From the IMG/VR virus record IMGVR_UViG_3300025141_000057, positions 1-64,000 of that record: a DNA stretch of 64,000 nucleotides, one strand, 5' to 3'. The DNA comes from a virus. Below, in pieces: positions 12,647 to 60,670 of this stretch. The translations under genes and the position numbers were made by a program. The notes beneath the pieces are model-generated. The model worked only from the letters and a program-made list of their open reading frames with translations, was not told the origin of the DNA and did not search any database. How positions within the stretch are numbered: position 1 is the first letter of the stretch; each line of letters begins with the position of its first letter.

Positions 12647-12981
12647 CATCACAACATAAAAAGAACAAATTAAGAACCCCGGGATACTTTATAAAGAGAT
12701 TAAAAGATAATAATTTTGTAACATTGCGAATGTTTCATAAGTATAGTCCAACTGATCCTCGGAGATGGACAGTGTTAGTCGATCCGGGTGGATCCTCTGT
12801 ATTTGTTACATGCTTCGAGAATACGCCGTTTGTAGGGGAATATTTGTTTAGTTTTAATGACGGTAATCAAAATTTTAATAATAACTTTAGCTTAAAAACT
12901 GACTCGATCGAGGTTGTTGTTAGTAAACTGCTAAAAACCGGAGTGCGACAAAATGATAAGAGCGATTTTTTAGATAAATAA
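12643..12981 (+). CDS. conserved hypothetical phage protein
   Basis: A 112-residue protein, basic at the N-terminus (MTSQHKKNKLRTPGYFIKRL) and with beta-strand-like segments (NFVTLRMFHKY, RWTVLVDP, SSVFVTCFE, GEYLFSF). It is not recognisably RegA or gp62, although the position behind gp45 invites that comparison. The ATGA overlap with gp45 indicates coupled translation. The last codons contain the late promoter of the next gene. Confidence 0.75.
   Translation: MTSQHKKNKLRTPGYFIKRLKDNNFVTLRMFHKYSPTDPRRWTVLVDPGGSSVFVTCFENTPFVGEYLFSFNDGNQNFNNNFSLKTDSIEVVVSKLLKTGVRQNDKSDFLDK
12974..12980 (+). promoter_or_regulatory. late promoter (ATAAATA) inside the end of the preceding gene
   Basis: ATAAATA ends 5 nt before the ATG at 12986 and overlaps the stop codon of the upstream gene. 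Confidence 0.5.
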
Positions 12982-14427: not shown

Positions 14428-15472
14428 AGACTTTGTCATACTTAAGTTTTTTGAGCTAGGGTTCTATCCAAAGTATAATAAATTTAACAATGTATATCAA
14501 TGCAGCTGTCCTATTTGTAGAGAAGGTAAGTCATTAGGTAAAAAACGTCGTTGTTATTATATACCAAAAAACGAAAACATATTTTGTCACAATTGTGGTT
14601 GGTCTGGAAAACCGTTAAGATGGATTAAGGAAGTTGCCGGCAATACTGATGAGGAAATTATTAAGGAATTAAAGGAATACATTCCTAATGCTGAAGACAT
14701 AACTGAAAGAGATGAAAAACCTAAGTCAGATTTTAAAGTCGAGACCTTGCCTAAGGATAGTATTAATTTGTCTGATAAGTTTCAACTTGACTATTATAGT
14801 AGCAACAATATTGTTACGGCTGTTAGATATCTTATTACTAAACGGAGATTAGATACTGCAGTTAATCGACCTGATAATTTATATGTTTCTTTAGTAGATA
14901 GAGTTCATAAGAATAGACTTGTTATACCTTTTATAAATGAAAATAAAGAGATTGAGTTTTATCAAACTCGTACAGTTTTAAATAAAGACGGTAGGACTAA
15001 ACCTAAGTATCTTGGTAAAGTTCAAGCTGAAAAAACGCTATTTAATATAGATAGAGTTAGTAATGATCATGATAAAGTTTATATTTTTGAAGGACCATTA
15101 AATGCTTTCTTTACTAAAAATTCTATAGCAGTAGCTGGTATTACTGAAAGAGGTAGATCATTTACTCAAAGACAAGAACAACAGCTTAATAATACTCTAA
15201 AATGGTATGATAAGGTGTGGATACTTGATTCTCAGTGGGTTGATCAAGCTTCATTAGTAAAATCAGAAGCATTACTAAAGCAAAAGGAGAAAGTTTTTAT
15301 ATGGCCAGAAAAATTTGGTAAAAGATTTAAAGATTTTAATGATATTGCAATAGCATGCAAAGTAGATGAGATTAAATGGGATTTTATAGAAAAAAATACC
15401 TTCGAAAGACTCGAAGGTATTGTGAGGTTATCTGAAATTAAAAAATATCGAAATCAGACGTATTTAAATTGA
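14411..15472 (+). CDS. gp61: DNA primase gp61 (zinc ribbon + TOPRIM)
   Basis: A 353-residue DnaG-like primase that lays RNA primers for lagging-strand synthesis in complex with gp41. The zinc ribbon is formed by C33-P-I-C36 and C59-H-N-C62, with extra cysteines at 31 and 48. The TOPRIM core shows the glutamate motif VYIFEGPLNAFF (about 217-228) and a later VWILDSQWVD (about 270), the counterpart of the DxD metal motif with only one clear aspartate followed by S-Q-W-V-D. The C-terminal 70 residues probably contact the helicase. The 3' end of this gene contains an antisense intrinsic terminator for the convergent gene. It overlaps that gene by 19 nt. Confidence 0.92.
   Translation: MISLPEDFVILKFFELGFYPKYNKFNNVYQCSCPICREGKSLGKKRRCYYIPKNENIFCHNCGWSGKPLRWIKEVAGNTDEEIIKELKEYIPNAEDITERDEKPKSDFKVETLPKDSINLSDKFQLDYYSSNNIVTAVRYLITKRRLDTAVNRPDNLYVSLVDRVHKNRLVIPFINENKEIEFYQTRTVLNKDGRTKPKYLGKVQAEKTLFNIDRVSNDHDKVYIFEGPLNAFFTKNSIAVAGITERGRSFTQRQEQQLNNTLKWYDKVWILDSQWVDQASLVKSEALLKQKEKVFIWPEKFGKRFKDFNDIAIACKVDEIKWDFIEKNTFERLEGIVRLSEIKKYRNQTYLN
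15390..15421 (-). terminator. intrinsic terminator on the minus strand inside the primase gene
   Basis: A perfect 11-bp inverted repeat (AATACCTTCGA / TCGAAGGTATT) with a 5-nt loop. Read on the minus strand it is followed by seven T (15396-15390). It lies 33 nt downstream of the minus-strand gene ending at 15454, whose transcript it would end, and within codons of the convergent primase gene. Confidence 0.85.
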
Positions 15473-15891
15473 GCATTACCAGTCTGTGCAATATAACCTT
15501 TAAACGACTCATTTAGAGCAGCAAGCTCTGTAGCGACTCTAGCAATTTTACGCTGTTCTGAAGCTTTCATTCGATCAAAGATTGTATCAGGCTCAGCACT
15601 AGCTAAAAGGGTTTGAATAGAATCAGCATCTTCACCATTTAGATAATGCAGAAACCCATCAATTTCATCAATCCACCCTTTTAAAGTAGCTCTCATAGCT
15701 GCATTACGCTCTTCTACTGCTACAGCGGCCCTTACGTTAGGGTCATCTTCTACAACAGTCTCATCAACTTCAACATCTACATCAAAATCCCCTGCACTAG
15801 TATCATCCTCTAATTCTGCCTCAAATGCTACTCTATCCTCGTCTGCTTGTTCATTGAGAGATTTAAAAAAACGTCTTTCGAATTTGGTCAT
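15454..15891 (-). CDS. acidic late protein, unknown function
   Basis: A 145-residue protein with a basic, aromatic N-terminus (MTKFERRFFKSLNEQADED), a very acidic stretch (about 25-55, with DFDVDVEVDETVVEDD) and a helical C-terminal half (RATLKGWIDEIDGFLHYL, ASEQRKIARVATELAALNESF). This is like acidic internal head or prohead-core proteins of T4-like phages in composition, but I cannot assign it. It is expressed from its own late promoter 5 nt before the ATG, back to back with that of the next gene, and ends near an embedded terminator. Confidence 0.75.
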   Translation of the reverse strand: MTKFERRFFKSLNEQADEDRVAFEAELEDDTSAGDFDVDVEVDETVVEDDPNVRAAVAVEERNAAMRATLKGWIDEIDGFLHYLNGEDADSIQTLLASAEPDTIFDRMKASEQRKIARVATELAALNESFKGYIAQTGNAQFKYV

Positions 15892-15896
15892 AAAAT

Positions 15897-15903
15897 TATT
15901 TAG
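15897..15903 (-). promoter_or_regulatory. late promoter (CTAAATA)
   Basis: CTAAATA on the minus strand ends 5 nt before the ATG at 15891. It faces away from the late promoter at 15912-15918, 8 bp apart. Confidence 0.65.
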
Positions 15904-15911
15904 TCTCTAGC

Positions 15912-15918
15912 ATAAATA
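15912..15918 (+). promoter_or_regulatory. late promoter (ATAAATA)
   Basis: ATAAATA, preceded by C, ends 5 nt before the ATG at 15924. The context GCATAAATAATTACATG is the same as at 59595. Confidence 0.8.
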
Positions 15919-15923
15919 ATTAC

Positions 15924-16250
15924 ATGGACGGACCGGAATTTCCTTATAGCGTAGGCCCAGAAGATAATCCTATTAATTTTCATATGAATGTACAAGATCA
16001 AATAGATATGTACAAGGATAACGAAAAACATCAAAAAGCCCCGCCAATTTTACCTTTTGAACTAGAACAAATGAATGAACTCCTTGGTAATACGTTTGTC
16101 TCTTTAGCTGAACTAAGAAATATGCTTTCGAAAGCAAAAGCTAATGAAAATATTTCATCCGGAGCAATTAATCAAATAAATGATAAAATTGATAAAATTA
16201 ACGAACTTATCCTTGATATTCCGGAAGATCTATCTAAAATAGCTATATGA
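15924..16250 (+). CDS. small late protein, unknown function
   Basis: A 108-residue protein with a polar N-terminus (MDGPEFPYSVGPEDNPINFHMNVQDQIDMY) and two helices likely to pair as a coiled coil (LPFELEQMNELLGNTFVSLAELRNML, GAINQINDKIDKINELIL). Its late promoter ends 5 nt before the start. The end overlaps the next gene by 4 nt, so the membrane protein that follows is probably translated from the same mRNA. Confidence 0.72.
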   Translation: MDGPEFPYSVGPEDNPINFHMNVQDQIDMYKDNEKHQKAPPILPFELEQMNELLGNTFVSLAELRNMLSKAKANENISSGAINQINDKIDKINELILDIPEDLSKIAI

Positions 16251-17786: not shown

Positions 17787-20700
17787 CTAAAATTGCAAAT
17801 TATTGCAATCCGGATCTTCGGGACATATCGTTGTAGTTGTAGTCGTTGGAGCCGGGGTAGTAGTCGTCGTGGTAGTAGTCGTCGTCGTGGTCGTAGTTAT
17901 TATTTGTTCTTCTATTAAGAAAGGTACCTGCAGCGGTAGGATCGGCGCCGGGTATATAAACACCGGGTCCTCCGGTTCCGGTTCCGGTTGCGGCGGATCC
18001 GGCGGATCCGGCGGATCCGGCGGCTGCGGCAGTGGCGGTTCAACAATTATAGTCGGTGGCACCCTGGTTGGAGGAACAGTACATGGGGGCGGTGGAGTTG
18101 TGTAGGGCGGCGTCGTATAAGGCGGCGTCGTATAAGGCGGCGTCGTATAAGGCGGAGTTGTGTACGGTGGTGGAGTTGTGTAAGGTGGTGGAGTTGTGTA
18201 CGGTGGTGTTGTAGGATCATCGTATATTTTAAAATCACCAGACGGTCCACCGTTCGTATAACCACCCGGCCAATTAGACCCGGGTAAATCATTAGTATTC
18301 TCTAGACCGCTGGGTGTATCAATGACCTCTTCACGCGTGCTGGGATCTGTGACATCATCGTCCTCCTCCTCTAAATACGGATCAACAAAGACGTCTTTTT
18401 TAAGAAGAGGGTCGAGTCCACCGGAGTCAATGTCAATGATGGGACCTTCTTTGGTTTGGGTTGTATCATCCGTTTCCTCGATCTTTGTGCGAGGATCAGT
18501 AGGATCGAGGCCACCAGGGTCAATGATGGGACCTTCACTTCCTTCCCCGGCATTTGGATCCCATGGACCGGCCGCCGACATCCGCCAGCCAGATGGCAGC
18601 TCAAACGGGTCACTTCCTTCCCCGGCATTTGGATCATATGGGCCAGCCGCTGACATCACCCAACCGGGTGGCAGAATAGGATCAGCAACCTGATCAGGTT
18701 GGTACGTTATTGGTTTTGAAGCTGATATTGCTTTATCAATATCAACTGTCTGCAAAACATAACTAGGCGACCCGGCATTATGGCTAAGGCGCTCCATTGC
18801 CGCATTAATCTCATTTTGAGTATCGGGGTTCCCATAAAAAGGTCCACCGCCGGTGGTTGTATGAGTCTCAACTAAAATAGGTGTGTTATTAGTGTATATA
18901 AATGACGGAGCACTACTATCACCCCTTTCCAATAATTCTTGGAAACTACTCTCTGGTATAGGTAGAGCAATGCTTACAGTTTCAGGATTTGCTCCGCGCT
19001 CTGACCGGCCACGGTCGAATGTCATTACTCTTGGAATTGATTTTCTTTCCGCATCAACTGTAACAACATATGAATCCTGTAAAATATAATTATAATCCGT
19101 ACGTGGTTCAGGAACGGGGTAAATAGCAGTGTTTTCAACCGGTGAATCAAAAATTCCGACACTTATATCCAGACTGCGGTCGCCAATCTTGATTCTTTCA
19201 ACAATATTTCTAGTTACTCTATTTCCATCTTTATCTATAAAATTTACAACGCCATCGGCACTATCACCCGGATACCGTACGTCCCAATGCTTGGACATTA
19301 CGAAGTGAATTGGAGACACCATGGTTATTGATTTTTCTGTCGCGGCTCTCCAATTATTCGGATTAAAACCAACTCCACGTTCACTTATACCTGATATATC
19401 CAATTTACCGGCAATTGGTAAGTTAGATACTAATAACCTGTTTATGAGTTTTTTAGTTTCAGACTCTGGTTCTGGACTTTCTCTTTGCTGTTGTACAGTT
19501 AAAGTGAATATCCGTGTTAGATATACTTGTATATCTTCCAATAACCACTCTGACAACATCCCGCTGGGATCGTCCTCCACCCCACTGTTAATATCTGTAA
19601 GTCTTTGCTGATCAGCTTGTAGTCTTTGAGTGAGTTCCTCCAAACTTAAAGTTGGTAATATACTGTCTCTGAAACTCCTCCTCGCCTCCAACCGTCTTTG
19701 GTTTGCAGCATTTAAAAGCTCTTGCCGAGTCGTTTCATTTTGCTCACTTTCAGCTTCCTGTCGTTCTCTTTCTATTCTAGCTTCTTCAGCTATAGCTGCC
19801 TTACTCGCGGCGACCGCAGCCGCCTCTTCCTGTAACTGCCTTAATCTAGCCTGTTCTAGCGATTTTTGTTCAGCTTCATAAGCAGCCGCCTTCCTAGCTG
19901 CCACTTCAGCGTCACGTATTGCATCGGAAGTCGCTTCACCGGCTTTTGATAATCTACCGGCAGTGGTTGGCTTATCCGGTGTAGCCGCTGTATATAGCCT
20001 CCTACCTTGGGTGATCTGCTCCTCTGCTTTAGTTGCTTGCGCTGCTTGTGCAGTTGCTTCTGCATCTGCCTGCGAGCGTGCCGCTTCTGCTTCCGCTTTT
20101 GCTGCCTCAGCAGCCGCGAGCGCCTCTGCCGCGACCTCTGCCGCGGCCTGAGCTATGCTTTCCGCTTTTGCCTGTGCTGCTGCATTTGCTGCGGCTCGAG
20201 CCGCGGTCTGAGCCGCAGATTCCGCTGCTGTACGTTCCGCTTGCGCAGCCGCGGCATCTACCGCGGCCTGAGCTGCTAATTCTGCCGCTTCTGCTTCTGC
20301 CTGCGCAGATGCTTCCGCTTTTGCTGCAGCATCTGCTGCCCTCACCGCTTCCTCCTCCTGTTGTCGAAGTTGATCAACCTGTTCTTGCGAGATTCTAAAT
20401 TCGTCTTGAGGGTTAGGTATATTTTGTGTTATCCTTTGTGATACAGGCTTACCTTCAACAAATTGCTGTAACGAAATGGTAACATCCATACTACCGTCTT
20501 CAGCAACTTGATCTGCAATAAGTGTTAACCCATCAGCATTTATATTTACCCATGGGGTGGGTAACCCCCATACAGAAGCAGGTGTAGTACCACTAGCACC
20601 GTCCCAAAGCTCTTCTTTAGTTTGATAATCCTCAATAAAGATCTCAACCTCACCATCAAGCTCTCTAGATACTTGTACATAATCTACATTAACAGTACCT

Positions 20701-22068: not shown

Positions 22069-22076
22069 TATTTAAT
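22069..22076 (-). promoter_or_regulatory. late promoter (ATTAAATA)
   Basis: ATTAAATA on the minus strand ends 5 nt before the ATG at 22063. Confidence 0.6.
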
Positions 22077-42734: not shown

Positions 42735-42760
42735 ATTATTTGCAAGCTTGCATAAATAAT
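42735..42760. promoter_or_regulatory. quasi-palindrome spanning a late promoter
   Basis: The 26-bp segment ATTATTT-GCAAGCTTGC-ATAAATAAT is almost perfectly self-complementary, with a perfect 12-bp core TGCAAGCTTGCA (42741-42752). Its right arm is the late -10 element. Confidence 0.55.
42752..42758 (+). promoter_or_regulatory. late promoter (ATAAATA)
   Basis: ATAAATA, preceded by C, ends 5 nt before the ATG at 42764. Confidence 0.8.
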
Positions 42761-49675: not shown

Positions 49676-49682
49676 TATTTAT
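49676..49682 (-). promoter_or_regulatory. late promoter (ATAAATA)
   Basis: ATAAATA on the minus strand ends 5 nt before the ATG at 49670. Confidence 0.78.
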
Positions 49683-51609: not shown

Positions 51610-51616
51610 TATTTAT
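51610..51616 (-). promoter_or_regulatory. late promoter (ATAAATA)
   Basis: ATAAATA on the minus strand ends 5 nt before the GTG start at 51604 and supports that non-ATG start. Confidence 0.75.
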
Positions 51617-52379: not shown

Positions 52380-52387
52380 TATTTATT
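52380..52387 (-). promoter_or_regulatory. late promoter (AATAAATA)
   Basis: AATAAATA on the minus strand ends 5 nt before the ATG at 52374 and overlaps the stop codon of the upstream gene. Confidence 0.75.
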
Positions 52388-54345: not shown

Positions 54346-54353
54346 TATTTAAT
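54346..54353 (-). promoter_or_regulatory. late promoter (ATTAAATA) of gp19
   Basis: ATTAAATA on the minus strand ends 5 nt before the ATG at 54340. Confidence 0.65.
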
Positions 54354-57189: not shown

Positions 57190-57196
57190 TATTTAT
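57190..57196 (-). promoter_or_regulatory. late promoter (ATAAATA) of gp18
   Basis: ATAAATA on the minus strand ends 5 nt before the sheath ATG at 57184. Confidence 0.78.
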
Positions 57197-57810: not shown

Positions 57811-57818
57811 TATTTATT
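57811..57818 (-). promoter_or_regulatory. late promoter (AATAAATA)
   Basis: AATAAATA on the minus strand ends 6 nt before the ATG at 57804. It overlaps the stop of gp17. Confidence 0.75.
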
Positions 57819-59562
57819 AGTGGCGACGGTAATCTACCGGTTGCCCTGTCCAATCCTCCGGTGGTTTTTCGCCAATAAGTTGATATCCAAATGCTTCTAG
57901 TTCATCTATATCAGCAGTTTGATCTTCACCCATGCCCCAAACTAGAGCATTCAGTTCATGAGTATGATCACCAACTATTTCACTGTCTAGGTATATGGAT
58001 GTTGGTTCTTCAAAATACTGAACGCCGAAATCCATAGGCTCTATAATAGAAGGCTTACCCATATCATCAACTTCTACTATCTCAAAGAAGCGTTCTGTTA
58101 TTTCTTTCTCTAATATAAAGAGACTGTATAACATTGCCATCACTCTATCATCATGAAACCCAGCTCGAGCCTTCCATGTACCGTTTGGATACCTTACAAA
58201 GTTTCTAAGCTCCATGACTGTCTCCTCTTCGTTAATATTAACAACTCTTACTTCGTTCATAAAGTAGCGCATATTAAGAACGCCTTTATATTTGGTATTA
58301 GTATGAGCTATCATCCCTCTCATTACATTACGACGATGAGCGTTAGCGTTACCATATGAAACGATTTTTTCATACCCCATGTCAACTGCTAGCCTATCCA
58401 CGACCTGTGCGCCACAATTGTTTCTCTCTATGAGAGCCAGGGGAGACCCCCAGTTACGCAAAATCTTATATAATCTATTAGTAAACTCCAACGGGGGTAT
58501 TTTATTGTTTCTATAAACAGCTACCTGCTTAATATCTTTTATATCGGTAATGTCTAATATCTGAATAACAGATGCATCTATACCCACACCTTCAGAGATA
58601 TCTACCCCGGCTACATATAGTCTAGACTCATCCGGCTCTTCCCATAGTTTATAATGACCATCGTCGAGAATAATTTTTGGTTTAGAAACCTTACCCATCA
58701 TCTCTTCAAACAGTTCGTCATCTAATGTAGATTCACCTGAGTGAATAAACTCACATTCAAATTCTTGTAACCAGGCATCTGCAGACCCAAGAGCGGTTCT
58801 AGTAGCTTTAGCCCATTGCTTATCTCTACCGGGTATCTCATCCCACTTAATTTTGTCATAGGCCCAGCCGTTTTCATTTTCTATTGCTCCGGTGTATAAT
58901 TTATAAAAAAGATTATCAGTACCATTAGCTGTAGAGCATACAAATACCTTAGAGTTTTTCGAGGAAGTAATAATAGGGAAAACGGATTTCCAGAATTCTT
59001 CTACCAAGTGAGGCTCAATAAAGGCCATCTCATCAATAACAAGACAGTTCACAGATTGACCACGAGCAGCTGTACCGGTTGTGGTTGTAATACCTATCCT
59101 ACTTCCATTTTCTAATGTCATTGATGTCTTAGCATATTCTTTAACAGGCGGCTTAAGCCAGTTTGGTAGCTCTTCATATGCCATTCTCACCCTTTGGAAG
59201 ATTTCAATAGAGGTAGCTTCTTTGTTCGCTACTAACAGGATGCGCTGATCGCTATTAAAACACGCTTGCCATAATATGTATATGGTCATCATAGTCGACT
59301 TACCAATCTGCCTAGAAGCTAATAGAACAAAAAACCTATTATCTCTCATCTTTCTAAGAGTTCTTTTTTGGGGTTTGTATAAAGATATTTTTTCTTTACC
59401 TCTATCAAGGTTAACAATATGAAAGAAATTTTCAGCAAAGTAGAGTATGTTTGCACTAGCTTTTTTAAGGTCTCTTACTTGTTGCTTAGTGTATTCACCT
59501 TTCCAATTAACATTGGGTAAGTTTTTATTACCCATATAGAACATATTATCTTGTCTAGCCAC
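57817..59562 (-). CDS. gp17: terminase large subunit gp17
   Basis: A 581-residue packaging motor (T4: 610). The ATPase half has Walker A SRQIGKST (83-90), Walker B CLVIDEMAF (173-181) and the coupling segment VFVCSTANGTDN. The nuclease half has VAGVDISEG (first metal aspartate), ALIERNNCGAQVVDRL and FHDDRVMAM, the acidic set of the RNase H-like fold. The start is GTG at 59562 (MARQDNMFYMGNKN), supported by a late promoter ending 5 nt upstream. It is not adjacent to the gp16-like gene. Confidence 0.95.
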   Translation of the reverse strand: MARQDNMFYMGNKNLPNVNWKGEYTKQQVRDLKKASANILYFAENFFHIVNLDRGKEKISLYKPQKRTLRKMRDNRFFVLLASRQIGKSTMMTIYILWQACFNSDQRILLVANKEATSIEIFQRVRMAYEELPNWLKPPVKEYAKTSMTLENGSRIGITTTTGTAARGQSVNCLVIDEMAFIEPHLVEEFWKSVFPIITSSKNSKVFVCSTANGTDNLFYKLYTGAIENENGWAYDKIKWDEIPGRDKQWAKATRTALGSADAWLQEFECEFIHSGESTLDDELFEEMMGKVSKPKIILDDGHYKLWEEPDESRLYVAGVDISEGVGIDASVIQILDITDIKDIKQVAVYRNNKIPPLEFTNRLYKILRNWGSPLALIERNNCGAQVVDRLAVDMGYEKIVSYGNANAHRRNVMRGMIAHTNTKYKGVLNMRYFMNEVRVVNINEEETVMELRNFVRYPNGTWKARAGFHDDRVMAMLYSLFILEKEITERFFEIVEVDDMGKPSIIEPMDFGVQYFEEPTSIYLDSEIVGDHTHELNALVWGMGEDQTADIDELEAFGYQLIGEKPPEDWTGQPVDYRRH

Positions 59563-59567
59563 AGAAA

Positions 59568-59575
59568 TATTTAAT
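59568..59575 (-). promoter_or_regulatory. late promoter (ATTAAATA) of gp17
   Basis: ATTAAATA on the minus strand ends 5 nt before the GTG start of gp17. It is the left half of a divergent late promoter pair separated by 7 bp. Confidence 0.65.
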
Positions 59576-59582
59576 GCTTAGC

Positions 59583-59589
59583 ATAAATA
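59583..59589 (+). promoter_or_regulatory. late promoter (ATAAATA)
   Basis: ATAAATA, preceded by GC, ends 5 nt before the ATG at 59595. Right half of the divergent pair with the gp17 promoter. Confidence 0.8.
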
Positions 59590-59594
59590 ATTAC

Positions 59595-60602
59595 ATGTCA
59601 AATAAGAAAGACTTGATGTCACTAGGTAAAGCATACGGAGATGTGCTCAATAAAGTTGTAATTAATGAAGAAGTCCCGGCCGGCGCTGTTGGTGAAGCTC
59701 CTCTAGAAACAGGAGGACCACAAGAAGATGGCGGCTGGAGACCACCGCTTGTCGACATTACTAAGCTATCTGATAAGGATAAAAAAGATAACATTTATAA
59801 TATTGGTGGGTTGACCTACGGTGATGGCAACGATCCAGGTATTAATAACCAACAGCCTGACCCAACTGGTCCTGAATTTGATCAAGTGCCATATTCTGGT
59901 AATGTGGGACCGCCAGAAGAAGATGAAGAAGATCATGATGAGGATGAGGATAATGAGGATGAGGATAATGAAAAAAAAGCAAAAAAAGGTAAAAAGGGTG
60001 AAGAAGCTGAAGAAGATGAAGAAGATGAAGAAATTTTAGCAGAACACGAGAAAATTGCACGCGAGGGCCTAAATAATTTTATGAGCAAGACTTCTGTATT
60101 TGATAAACTTTATAATAAGGTAATGGTCAGTGAGAGCTTTGGTGAAAATGCTGAAGATGTTACTGAGCTTGAAGCCCTCGGAATTGAAACCGACGTTGAG
60201 GAGGTTGTAGATGAGGTTCCAGAGGAAATCGCAGTAACCATTCCCGGTGAACTAGCACAAACACTCGCTGATATCTTACAAACAGCTTTAGCACAACAAG
60301 AGACTGAGGTTGACATCGATGTTGATGTTGCAGAAGTCACTGATACACAGTTTGAAGAGGATGAAGAGGCCGCTATGAAAGATGGTGGTGGATACGGCAT
60401 TGATGCTGGATCGACTCTTAAGGGAGAAATTAACTACGGTAAAAATAACAAGGTTAGTAACTTAAAGACCCAGGGTGCTGCTGCACAGAAAGATGGTGGT
60501 GGATACGGCGTTGATGCTGGATCGACTCTTTCGAAAGAAATTAACTACGGTAAGCAGAACAAAGTTGGTAACCTTAAAGTCGGTAAAAACGCTTTCGAAT
60601 AA
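59595..60602 (+). CDS. acidic repeat protein, possible prohead-core/internal protein
   Basis: A 335-residue late protein, mostly low complexity. After MSNKKDLMSLGKAYGDVLNKVV it has a Pro/Gly-rich linker, a very acidic block (about 105-135, EEDEEDHDEDEDNEDEDNE), a basic KKAKKGKKG, more acid, then NNFMSKTSVFDKLYNKVMVSE. A Val/Glu/Asp-rich part follows, and two copies of a repeat containing KDGGGYG(I/V)DAGSTL and EINYGK end the protein. Extreme acidity recalls T4 prohead-core proteins such as gp67, but homology is not evident. The ATG is fixed by the promoter 5 nt upstream. A terminator follows at 60627. Confidence 0.72.
   Translation: MSNKKDLMSLGKAYGDVLNKVVINEEVPAGAVGEAPLETGGPQEDGGWRPPLVDITKLSDKDKKDNIYNIGGLTYGDGNDPGINNQQPDPTGPEFDQVPYSGNVGPPEEDEEDHDEDEDNEDEDNEKKAKKGKKGEEAEEDEEDEEILAEHEKIAREGLNNFMSKTSVFDKLYNKVMVSESFGENAEDVTELEALGIETDVEEVVDEVPEEIAVTIPGELAQTLADILQTALAQQETEVDIDVDVAEVTDTQFEEDEEAAMKDGGGYGIDAGSTLKGEINYGKNNKVSNLKTQGAAAQKDGGGYGVDAGSTLSKEINYGKQNKVGNLKVGKNAFE
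60378..60580 (+). repeat. two 111-bp-spaced direct repeats in the acidic protein
   Basis: Blocks starting at 60378 and 60489 share AAAGATGGTGGTGGATACGG and continue with one mismatch through GATGCTGGATCGACTCTT, then diverge mildly. They encode the two KDGGGYG...NYGK units and suggest a recent duplication. Confidence 0.9.
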
Positions 60603-60662: not shown

Positions 60663-60670
60663 AATAAATA
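60663..60670 (+). promoter_or_regulatory. late promoter (AATAAATA)
   Basis: AATAAATA ends 5 nt before the GTG at 60676 and directly follows the terminator T-run. Confidence 0.75.

What the first reader, a model, noticed from the sequence alone, without database searches (positions are those of the whole stretch)
59568..59589. Second divergent late promoter forms a hyphenated palindrome at the gp17 locus
TATTTAATGCT-T-AGCATAAATA is nearly self-complementary; its arms are the late promoters of gp17 (minus) and the acidic repeat protein (plus). The right half is almost identical to the right half at 15911-15926 (GCATAAATAATTACATG). The recurrence suggests a mobile or selected promoter module rather than two independent promoters.
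Basis: seen in the sequence. Interest (0 to 1): 0.5.

Follow-up and report, generated by a model that had tools for sequence, protein, structure and literature searches.

The report
Back-to-back late promoters, probably leaderless mRNAs
The palindrome is two T4-type late promoters set back to back, but each sits so close to its gene that the messenger RNA should begin right at the start codon, and the same spacing recurs before many genes of related uncultured marine phages.

Summary
The sequence is there (59568-59589), but as a palindrome it needs a one-base bulge. It is two divergent T4-type late boxes (TAAATA cores 10 bp apart) for gp17 (GTG 59562, minus) and an acidic protein (ATG 59595, plus). 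In 75 of 75 loci that hold the whole junction both boxes and a 5-6-nt distance to each start codon are kept. The central 9-10 bp, and so the inner palindrome, vary. The half-site occurs twice in the 77-kb record. Its identity at both junctions exceeds chance modestly (32 of 5000 shuffles).

The more interesting feature is the spacing. In this clade boxes lie mostly 5 nt (less often 6-8) before start codons; by T4 numbering +1 then falls on the A/G of AUG/GUG. Shine-Dalgarno motifs are rare, -1 is a pyrimidine in 51 of 53 cases, and in one relative early TATAAT boxes also abut starts. Stretches of T4, KVP40, cyanophages and rhizobial phages have none at 5 nt; cultured SAR11/OM43 phages are mixed. 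I infer leaderless late, perhaps also early, mRNAs. No transcript data were available.

The parts
59568..59575 (-). late promoter box of gp17 (ATTAAATA on the minus strand; TAAATA core 59573-59568), 5 nt before GTG at 59562
59582..59589 (+). late promoter box of the acidic protein (CATAAATA; TAAATA core 59584-59589), 5 nt (ATTAC) before ATG at 59595
59574..59583 (.). 10-bp centre between the two cores, variable in relatives; length 10 (20 variants) or 9 (4 variants)
57817..59562 (-). gp17, large terminase (581 aa, GTG start, predicted +1 of its mRNA at 59562)
   Evidence: tblastn to annotated large terminases of T4-like phages; ORF
59595..60602 (+). acidic repeat protein, 335 aa, no Pfam or PHROG match at E 0.001; I take 59595 as its start, not the mechanical ORF start 59574, whose ATG lies in the variable centre
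15897..15904 (-). second divergent pair: late box (ACTAAATA) of the 145-aa gene 15454-15891, 5 nt (ATTTT) before ATG
15911..15918 (+). second divergent pair: late box (CATAAATA) of the 108-aa gene 15924-16250, 5 nt (ATTAC) before ATG; cores 10 bp apart as at 59.57 kb
12975..12980 (+). TAAATA core 5 nt before ATG 12986
22069..22074 (-). TAAATA core 5 nt before ATG 22063
42753..42758 (+). TAAATA core 5 nt before ATG 42764
49676..49681 (-). TAAATA core 5 nt before ATG 49670
51610..51615 (-). TAAATA core 5 nt before GTG 51604
52380..52385 (-). TAAATA core 5 nt before ATG 52374 (baseplate hub, PHROG match)
54346..54351 (-). TAAATA core 5 nt before ATG 54340
57190..57195 (-). TAAATA core 5 nt before ATG 57184 (tail sheath, PHROG match)
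60665..60670 (+). TAAATA core 5 nt before GTG 60676

Best explanation
The feature is a pair of back-to-back T4-type (gp55-dependent) late promoters serving two divergent genes. Shown from sequence: each box ends 5 nt before its start codon, this spacing is the commonest one for boxed genes of this clade, and it is conserved. Inferred: as the T4 box spans -13 to -6, transcription starts on or within about three bases of the first base of AUG/GUG, so these mRNAs have no leader and no Shine-Dalgarno site and are translated as leaderless mRNAs. Inferred: with the two predicted +1 sites only 33 bp apart, two polymerases cannot occupy the junction at once, so gp17 and its partner compete for one initiation site. 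The palindromic look follows from placing two boxes back to back with no leader to separate them.
For: Box-to-start distance d in this record: of 36 boxed genes (74 genes called) 14 are at d=5 and 13 at d=6-8; shuffle mean 0.18 at d=5. Relatives: 253 at d=5, 88 at d=6, 12 at d=7, 4 at d=8-9 and 12 below 5, of 369 distinct starts with a box within 9 nt: a sharp lower limit where +1 would pass into the codon. PMC2988020 (section 3, part 1 of 6, read) names A at -13 in place of T, which I read as the first base, so the box is -13 to -6. At d=5, position -1 is T/C in 14 of 14 (this record) and 37 of 39 (G002), against 0.65 in un-boxed genes of relatives: the usual Y(-1)R(+1) start-site preference (recalled). 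Shine-Dalgarno motif in other genes: 3 of 42 and 9 of 110, against T4 17 of 35 and HTVC008M 37 of 75. Whole-record TAAATAN5ATG against its reversed control: this 15 v 3, G001 30 v 5, G002 40 v 2, G003 43 v 7; KVP40 2 v 2, S-PM2 5 v 3, phiM9 0 v 1. gp55 homologues in 5 of 6 records searched (E 1e-15 to 2e-18). At gp17 the start is GTG at d=5 in 19 variants and ATG at d=6 in 5.
Against: No transcript data: +1 is extrapolated from T4, and which base is -13 is my reading. The window's own 77-kb record has no gp55 match, though it is a fragment; the G005 gp55 match holds one stop codon. The gene starts were chosen by a simple caller that takes the first in-frame start after the box, which favours small d; the same caller gives 0 at d=5 in the T4, KVP40, cyanophage, XG4 and rhizobial stretches. 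4 of the record's 15 TAAATAN5ATG matches are not at called gene starts. In this record 4 boxed genes have d below 5. Relatives are homologous, so their counts are not independent. Cyanophages also have few Shine-Dalgarno motifs (S-SM2 5 of 26, S-PM2 2 of 24), so lack of SD alone does not mean leaderless. T4 has 10 v 5 matches of TAAATAN5ATG and RHph_I1_18 6 v 0; neither was followed up outside its stretch, where d=5 is 0.
Confidence: 0.8

Rival explanations
1. A mobile or duplicated promoter module: the AGCATAAATAATTACATG element was copied from one junction to the other.
For: 19 bp identical at two junctions; 32 of 5000 column-shuffled sets reach such a pair. Both junctions have cores 10 bp apart in the window. 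23 of the 80 listed scan matches lie elsewhere.
Against: Beyond the 19 bp the two junctions do not match in the window; the centres differ.
Confidence: 0.05
2. The palindrome is an operator: a dimeric protein binds the dyad and regulates both genes.
For: Some relatives have a perfect 22-bp palindrome at the second junction (L253, L266: TATTTA-TGCTCGAGCA-TAAATA).
Against: At the gp17 junction the centre varies in 24 variants with 0 or 1 inner pair of 4-5, expectation 0.23 per pair; the boxes and spacings are what is kept.
Confidence: 0.07
3. The boxes are late promoters but the messages start upstream or come by read-through, and the short distance merely reflects tight gene packing.
For: The genome is dense; many genes lie in runs of one strand.
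Against: Stretches of T4, KVP40, cyanophage, XG4 and rhizobial phages have 0 boxes at d=5 and 2-10 each at d=18-40. The Y(-1)R(+1) signature sits on the start codon.
Confidence: 0.12

Closest known systems
T4 late promoters (gp55/gp33/gp45, TATAAATA)
   Same: Same TAAATA core; gp55 homologue in five relatives' records; AT-rich just downstream of the box.
   Different: In the T4 stretch 9 of 15 boxed annotated starts have the box 24-28 nt before the start, with purine-rich SD-like sequence between; here mostly 5-8 nt. The first bases of the box are variable here; NATAAATA is reported for S-PM2 (PMC2984593, passages).
Overlapping late promoters of divergent T4 genes 4/53 and inh/segE
   Same: Two late boxes in one divergent intergenic region.
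   Different: In T4 they face each other and the leaders overlap (my reading); here they stand back to back with no leaders.
Late promoters of Pelagibacter phages HTVC008M and Mosig and OM43 phage Melnitz
   Same: d=5 boxes, mostly with a pyrimidine at -1 (8 of 9, 4 of 4 and 3 of 3 genes); HTVC008M has a divergent gp2/gp4 pair of the same kind with cores 4 bp apart. 15 late promoters are reported for Melnitz (PMC9004378, passages).
   Different: They are mixed: 5, 8 and 10 boxed genes at d=18-40 in the stretches read, and SD motifs commoner; they encode bS21, which was not found in G000-G005.
Leaderless genes of bacteria with TATAAT 6-7 nt before the start (recalled from gene-finder literature; no call)
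   Same: 21 un-boxed genes of G002 have TATAAT 4-9 nt before the start, 14 of them with a TTG hexamer at a 15-16-nt spacer.
   Different: Here a phage clade with its own late sigma factor seems to do this for late and perhaps early genes. One paper states in passing that phage transcripts are often leaderless (PMC5312081, passage), so leaderless phage mRNA as such is not new.

Membership tests
T4-type late promoter | 8-bp TATAAATA-like box about one turn upstream of the start site | tested here: met
   Box part: TAAATA core near the 5' end of 36 of 74 genes in this record, 14 at d=5; first two positions variable. The start site itself is not mapped.
T4-type late promoter | phage encodes gp55 | tested here: met
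   5 of 6 records (G001-G005) match S-SM2 gp55; G000, a fragment, does not; the G005 match holds one stop
T4-type late promoter | gp33 and gp45 present; dependence on replication | not tested
   not searched
T4-type late promoter | no conserved -35 element | tested here: inconclusive
   A/T bias at -28 to -25 may be partly the opposite box of divergent pairs; not separated
Leaderless mRNA | 5' end within a few nt of the start codon | not testable with these tools
   predicted from d=5-8 and T4 numbering; no transcript data
Leaderless mRNA | no Shine-Dalgarno site in the message | tested here: met
   boxed genes (d up to 9) of the record 0 of 32, other genes 3 of 43 with SD motif; in relatives 34 of 369 boxed genes have a motif in the upstream DNA, at d=5 necessarily upstream of the predicted +1
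Mobile promoter module | copies at non-orthologous places within and between related genomes | tested here: not met
   2 copies in this record; 57 of 80 listed scan matches at the same two junctions, 23 elsewhere and not traced to related genomes
Operator palindrome | dyad conserved in relatives | tested here: not met
   24 variants at the gp17 junction, inner pairs 0 or 1 of 4-5

The most novel reading that the evidence does not exclude
A whole clade of uncultured marine T4-like phages has largely abandoned leaders: both its early (TTGA-N-TATAAT) and its late (TAAATA) promoters are fused to start codons, so that the first gene of most transcripts is leaderless. SAR11/OM43 phages are an intermediate, mixed stage that also carries its own ribosomal protein bS21, which could tune host ribosomes toward such messages.
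Probability: 0.6. Interest if true: 0.65.

Novelty: new variant of a known kind. Interest (0 to 1): 0.5.

Why it matters
It would show that the T4 late programme can run on leaderless messages, and gives an exact, testable start-site rule (TAAATA + 5 nt + start codon) for promoter and gene-start annotation in marine phages. One paper reports that its prediction of late promoters in pelagimyophages by earlier methods was unsuccessful (PMC7029224, passages). It also suggests a test of why some marine phages carry bS21: among the 18 records searched, the only ones over the family cut-off are the three with mixed short and long late spacings.

Tried and rejected
Mobile module and operator palindrome: see rivals. 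The ATAAAT control for spacing was discarded because it overlaps the box; other anagrams are (next best at d=5 in this record: AAATAT, 5, which also overlaps the box region) and upstream shuffles. A first half-site tally (56 of 76 contexts at the two junctions) mixed in loci fetched by the gp17 search and so leaned toward that junction; the scan's own loci alone give 43 of 63, which I use. Host: gp17 in GTDB genome contigs gave no relative; a 33-nt stretch of a phage tRNA matched four contigs of Bacillota/Clostridiales and Puniceicoccales MAGs, which I take as no lead; no WhiB in 6 records; host unknown. bS21 as the reason in this clade: not supported, no match in G000-G005, some of which are fragments. 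Inversion of the second junction's core in some relatives (for example L265, L257, L253, L281: 20-24 inverted against 12-16 forward) is suggestive only. The sequences are short and the 19 loci compared were chosen out of 80; the inverted score is higher in 10 of them (L284, which lacks the pair, among them), the forward score in 7 (L213, identical to the window, among them), L266 is tied and L290 differs by 0.5.

Literature: in the listings of 10 searches I saw no title or abstract start on leaderless late mRNAs in T4-like phages; the listed papers were mostly not opened. PMC9004378 uses 'leaderless' only in a reference title. PMC5312081 says in passing that phage transcripts are often leaderless. 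The library holds open-licence PMC papers only.

Full report
Observation. TATTTAATGCTTAGCATAAATA lies at 59568-59589. It holds two TAAATA cores in opposite directions, 59573-59568 (minus) and 59584-59589 (plus). Read as a palindrome it needs a one-base bulge: the ATGCT-T-AGCAT dyad and the dyad of the two cores do not share a centre. The half-site is repeated at 15910-15926; 19 bp are shared. The whole 77,320-base record, an IMG/VR virus contig, holds two copies of the 18-mer.

What it is. On the minus side the core ends 5 nt before GTG 59562, the start of gp17 (its listed tblastn hits are mostly annotated large terminases of T4-like phages, best listed identity 36.7%). On the plus side it ends 5 nt before ATG 59595 of a 335-aa acidic protein without Pfam or PHROG match at E 0.001. 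The mechanical ORF start at 59574 uses an ATG inside the variable centre. At 15.9 kb the same arrangement serves a 145-aa and a 108-aa gene, again with 5-nt spacers and cores 10 bp apart.

Conservation. A gp17 search found 231 relatives and kept the best 80 (100 to 75% identity). With the window, 75 of 81 loci show the pair; the six others (L014, L048, L060, L061, L066, L076) are contigs that end inside gp17 or within the junction. Among 24 distinct variants the plus spacer is 5 nt in all 24, the gp17 spacer 5 nt (19) or 6 nt (5), the centre 10 bp (20) or 9 bp (4). The centre sequence varies, with 0 or 1 inner pair. For the second junction the best 80 of 94 relatives (100 to 54%) were taken. 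One (L228) was too short. Of 79, 74 match the full pattern with both start codons; both boxes are present in 78, L284 lacking one, and the 145-aa side has d=5 in 79. The partner side is looser there, with spacers of 3 to 9 nt. So what is kept is box and distance, above all at d=5, not the palindrome.

The spacing. In the record, TAAATA lies exactly 5 nt before 14 of 74 called gene starts and 5-8 nt before 27; shuffled upstream regions give means of 0.18 and 0.76. In relatives of 5 kb or more, 369 distinct starts have a box within 9 nt: 253 at 5, 88 at 6, 12 at 7, 4 at 8-9 and 12 below 5. Whole-record counts of TAAATAN5ATG against the reversed pattern: this 15 v 3 (11 of the 15 at called starts); G001 30 v 5; G002 40 v 2; G003 43 v 7; HTVC008M 14 v 4; Mosig 11 v 3; Melnitz 5 v 3; T4 10 v 5; XG4 10 v 11; S-SM2 2 v 2; B23 4 v 5; phiM9 0 v 1; phiM19 0 v 0; RHph_I1_18 6 v 0; S-PM2 5 v 3; P-SSM4 4 v 6; KVP40 2 v 2; Cr30 0 v 1; Syn9 3 v 3; Atu_ph04 0 v 0. 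With one and the same gene caller on stretches of 35-173 kb, d=5 / d=18-40 counts are: this 14/1, G002 39/5, HTVC008M 9/5, Mosig 4/8, Melnitz 3/10, and 0 at d=5 in S-PM2, Syn9, S-SM2, B23, KVP40, T4, phiM9, phiM19, I1_18 and XG4, which have 2, 2, 7, 10, 9, 9, 4, 4, 9 and 8 at 18-40. The caller found only 8 genes in 40 kb of Syn9 and 24 in 40 kb of S-PM2, so those rows say little.

Why leaderless. The T4 review states that the box lies about one turn upstream of the start site and names position -13 as a T replaced by A at nine sites (PMC2988020, section 3, part 1 of 6). I read this as the first base, in line with the NATAAATA of S-PM2 (PMC2984593, passages). Then the box is -13 to -6, and a start codon at d=5 begins at +1. 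Three features fit: a sharp lower limit at d=5; a pyrimidine at -1 in 14 of 14 and 37 of 39 d=5 genes, against 65% in un-boxed genes; and few Shine-Dalgarno motifs (3 of 42; 9 of 110; T4 17 of 35). Cyanophages are also SD-poor, so the last point alone is weak. At d=6 the picture is less clean: the base at T4 +1 is A in 57% and T in 37%, so some of these may start on the AUG itself.

Early genes. In G002 (170,908 bases), 38 of 110 un-boxed genes have TATAAT in the stretch examined, 21 of them 4-9 nt before the start (mode 6-7), and 14 of these 21 have a TTG hexamer at a 15-16-nt spacer. This is where a sigma70 start site would fall on or near the start codon (established knowledge). In HTVC008M none and in T4 one of the TATAAT hits lies that close. 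In the window's own record only 3 of 42 do, and most un-boxed genes of both records have no such box. So early leaderless transcription is likely for some genes of G002 and only suggested here.

Mechanism. gp55 homologues are in G001-G005. The two predicted +1 sites are 33 bp apart (59562, 59595), less than one polymerase footprint (established knowledge), so the junction should fire in only one direction at a time. That is an inference from geometry. In T4 the divergent pairs 4/53 and inh/segE overlap face to face, with leaders; without leaders such overlap is not possible and the boxes must stand back to back, which makes the inverted repeat.

What remains. The 19-bp identity of the two junctions is more than the promoter make-up predicts (32 of 5000 shuffles). 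At the second junction some relatives carry the AGCATAAATAATTAC half on the other side, and their core aligns better inverted although both flanking genes are homologous and in the same order (19 chosen loci of 80). A small inversion between the arms, or selection on one side, could do this. It is open.

bS21. Of 18 records searched, bS21 exceeds the family cut-off in HTVC008M, Mosig and Melnitz only; RHph_I1_18 has a match below it. Published work proposes that phage bS21 redirects host ribosomes (PMC9976891 and PMC6375957, passages). The overlap with mixed short and long late spacings is three related phages, so it is a lead, not a correlation.

Noticed in passing
L086 (HTVC008M) 18917-18942: Divergent gp2/gp4 junction of a cultured SAR11 phage has the same back-to-back d=5 boxes, cores 4 bp apart.
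   Followed up: partly
15892-15923; L265, L257, L253, L281: The promoter core between the 145-aa and 108-aa genes looks inverted in some relatives; in L253 and L266 the centre is a perfect palindrome.
   Followed up: partly
L293-L301 (G002): Some early-type genes carry TTG-N-TATAAT promoters 4-9 nt before the start codon.
   Followed up: partly
L306, L307, L308: bS21 in HTVC008M, Mosig and Melnitz, the cultured phages with mixed short and long late spacings; no match in G000-G005.
   Followed up: partly
L301 5852-6261: tmRNA predicted in G002 with an unusually long tag (32 aa), possibly a permuted gene misread.
   Followed up: no
L003 10079-11572: Three phage tRNAs (Arg tct, Met cat, and one with taa anticodon but only 76 bases long), 3' CCA encoded.
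   Followed up: partly
G001 near 111.5 kb, G002 near 116.7 kb, G003 near 169.0 kb: A third divergent d=5 pair with cores 7-8 bp apart, outside the window's record.
   Followed up: no
RHph_I1_18 (W07), whole record: Six reverse-strand TAAATAN5ATG matches against 0 in the control; not looked at.
   Followed up: no
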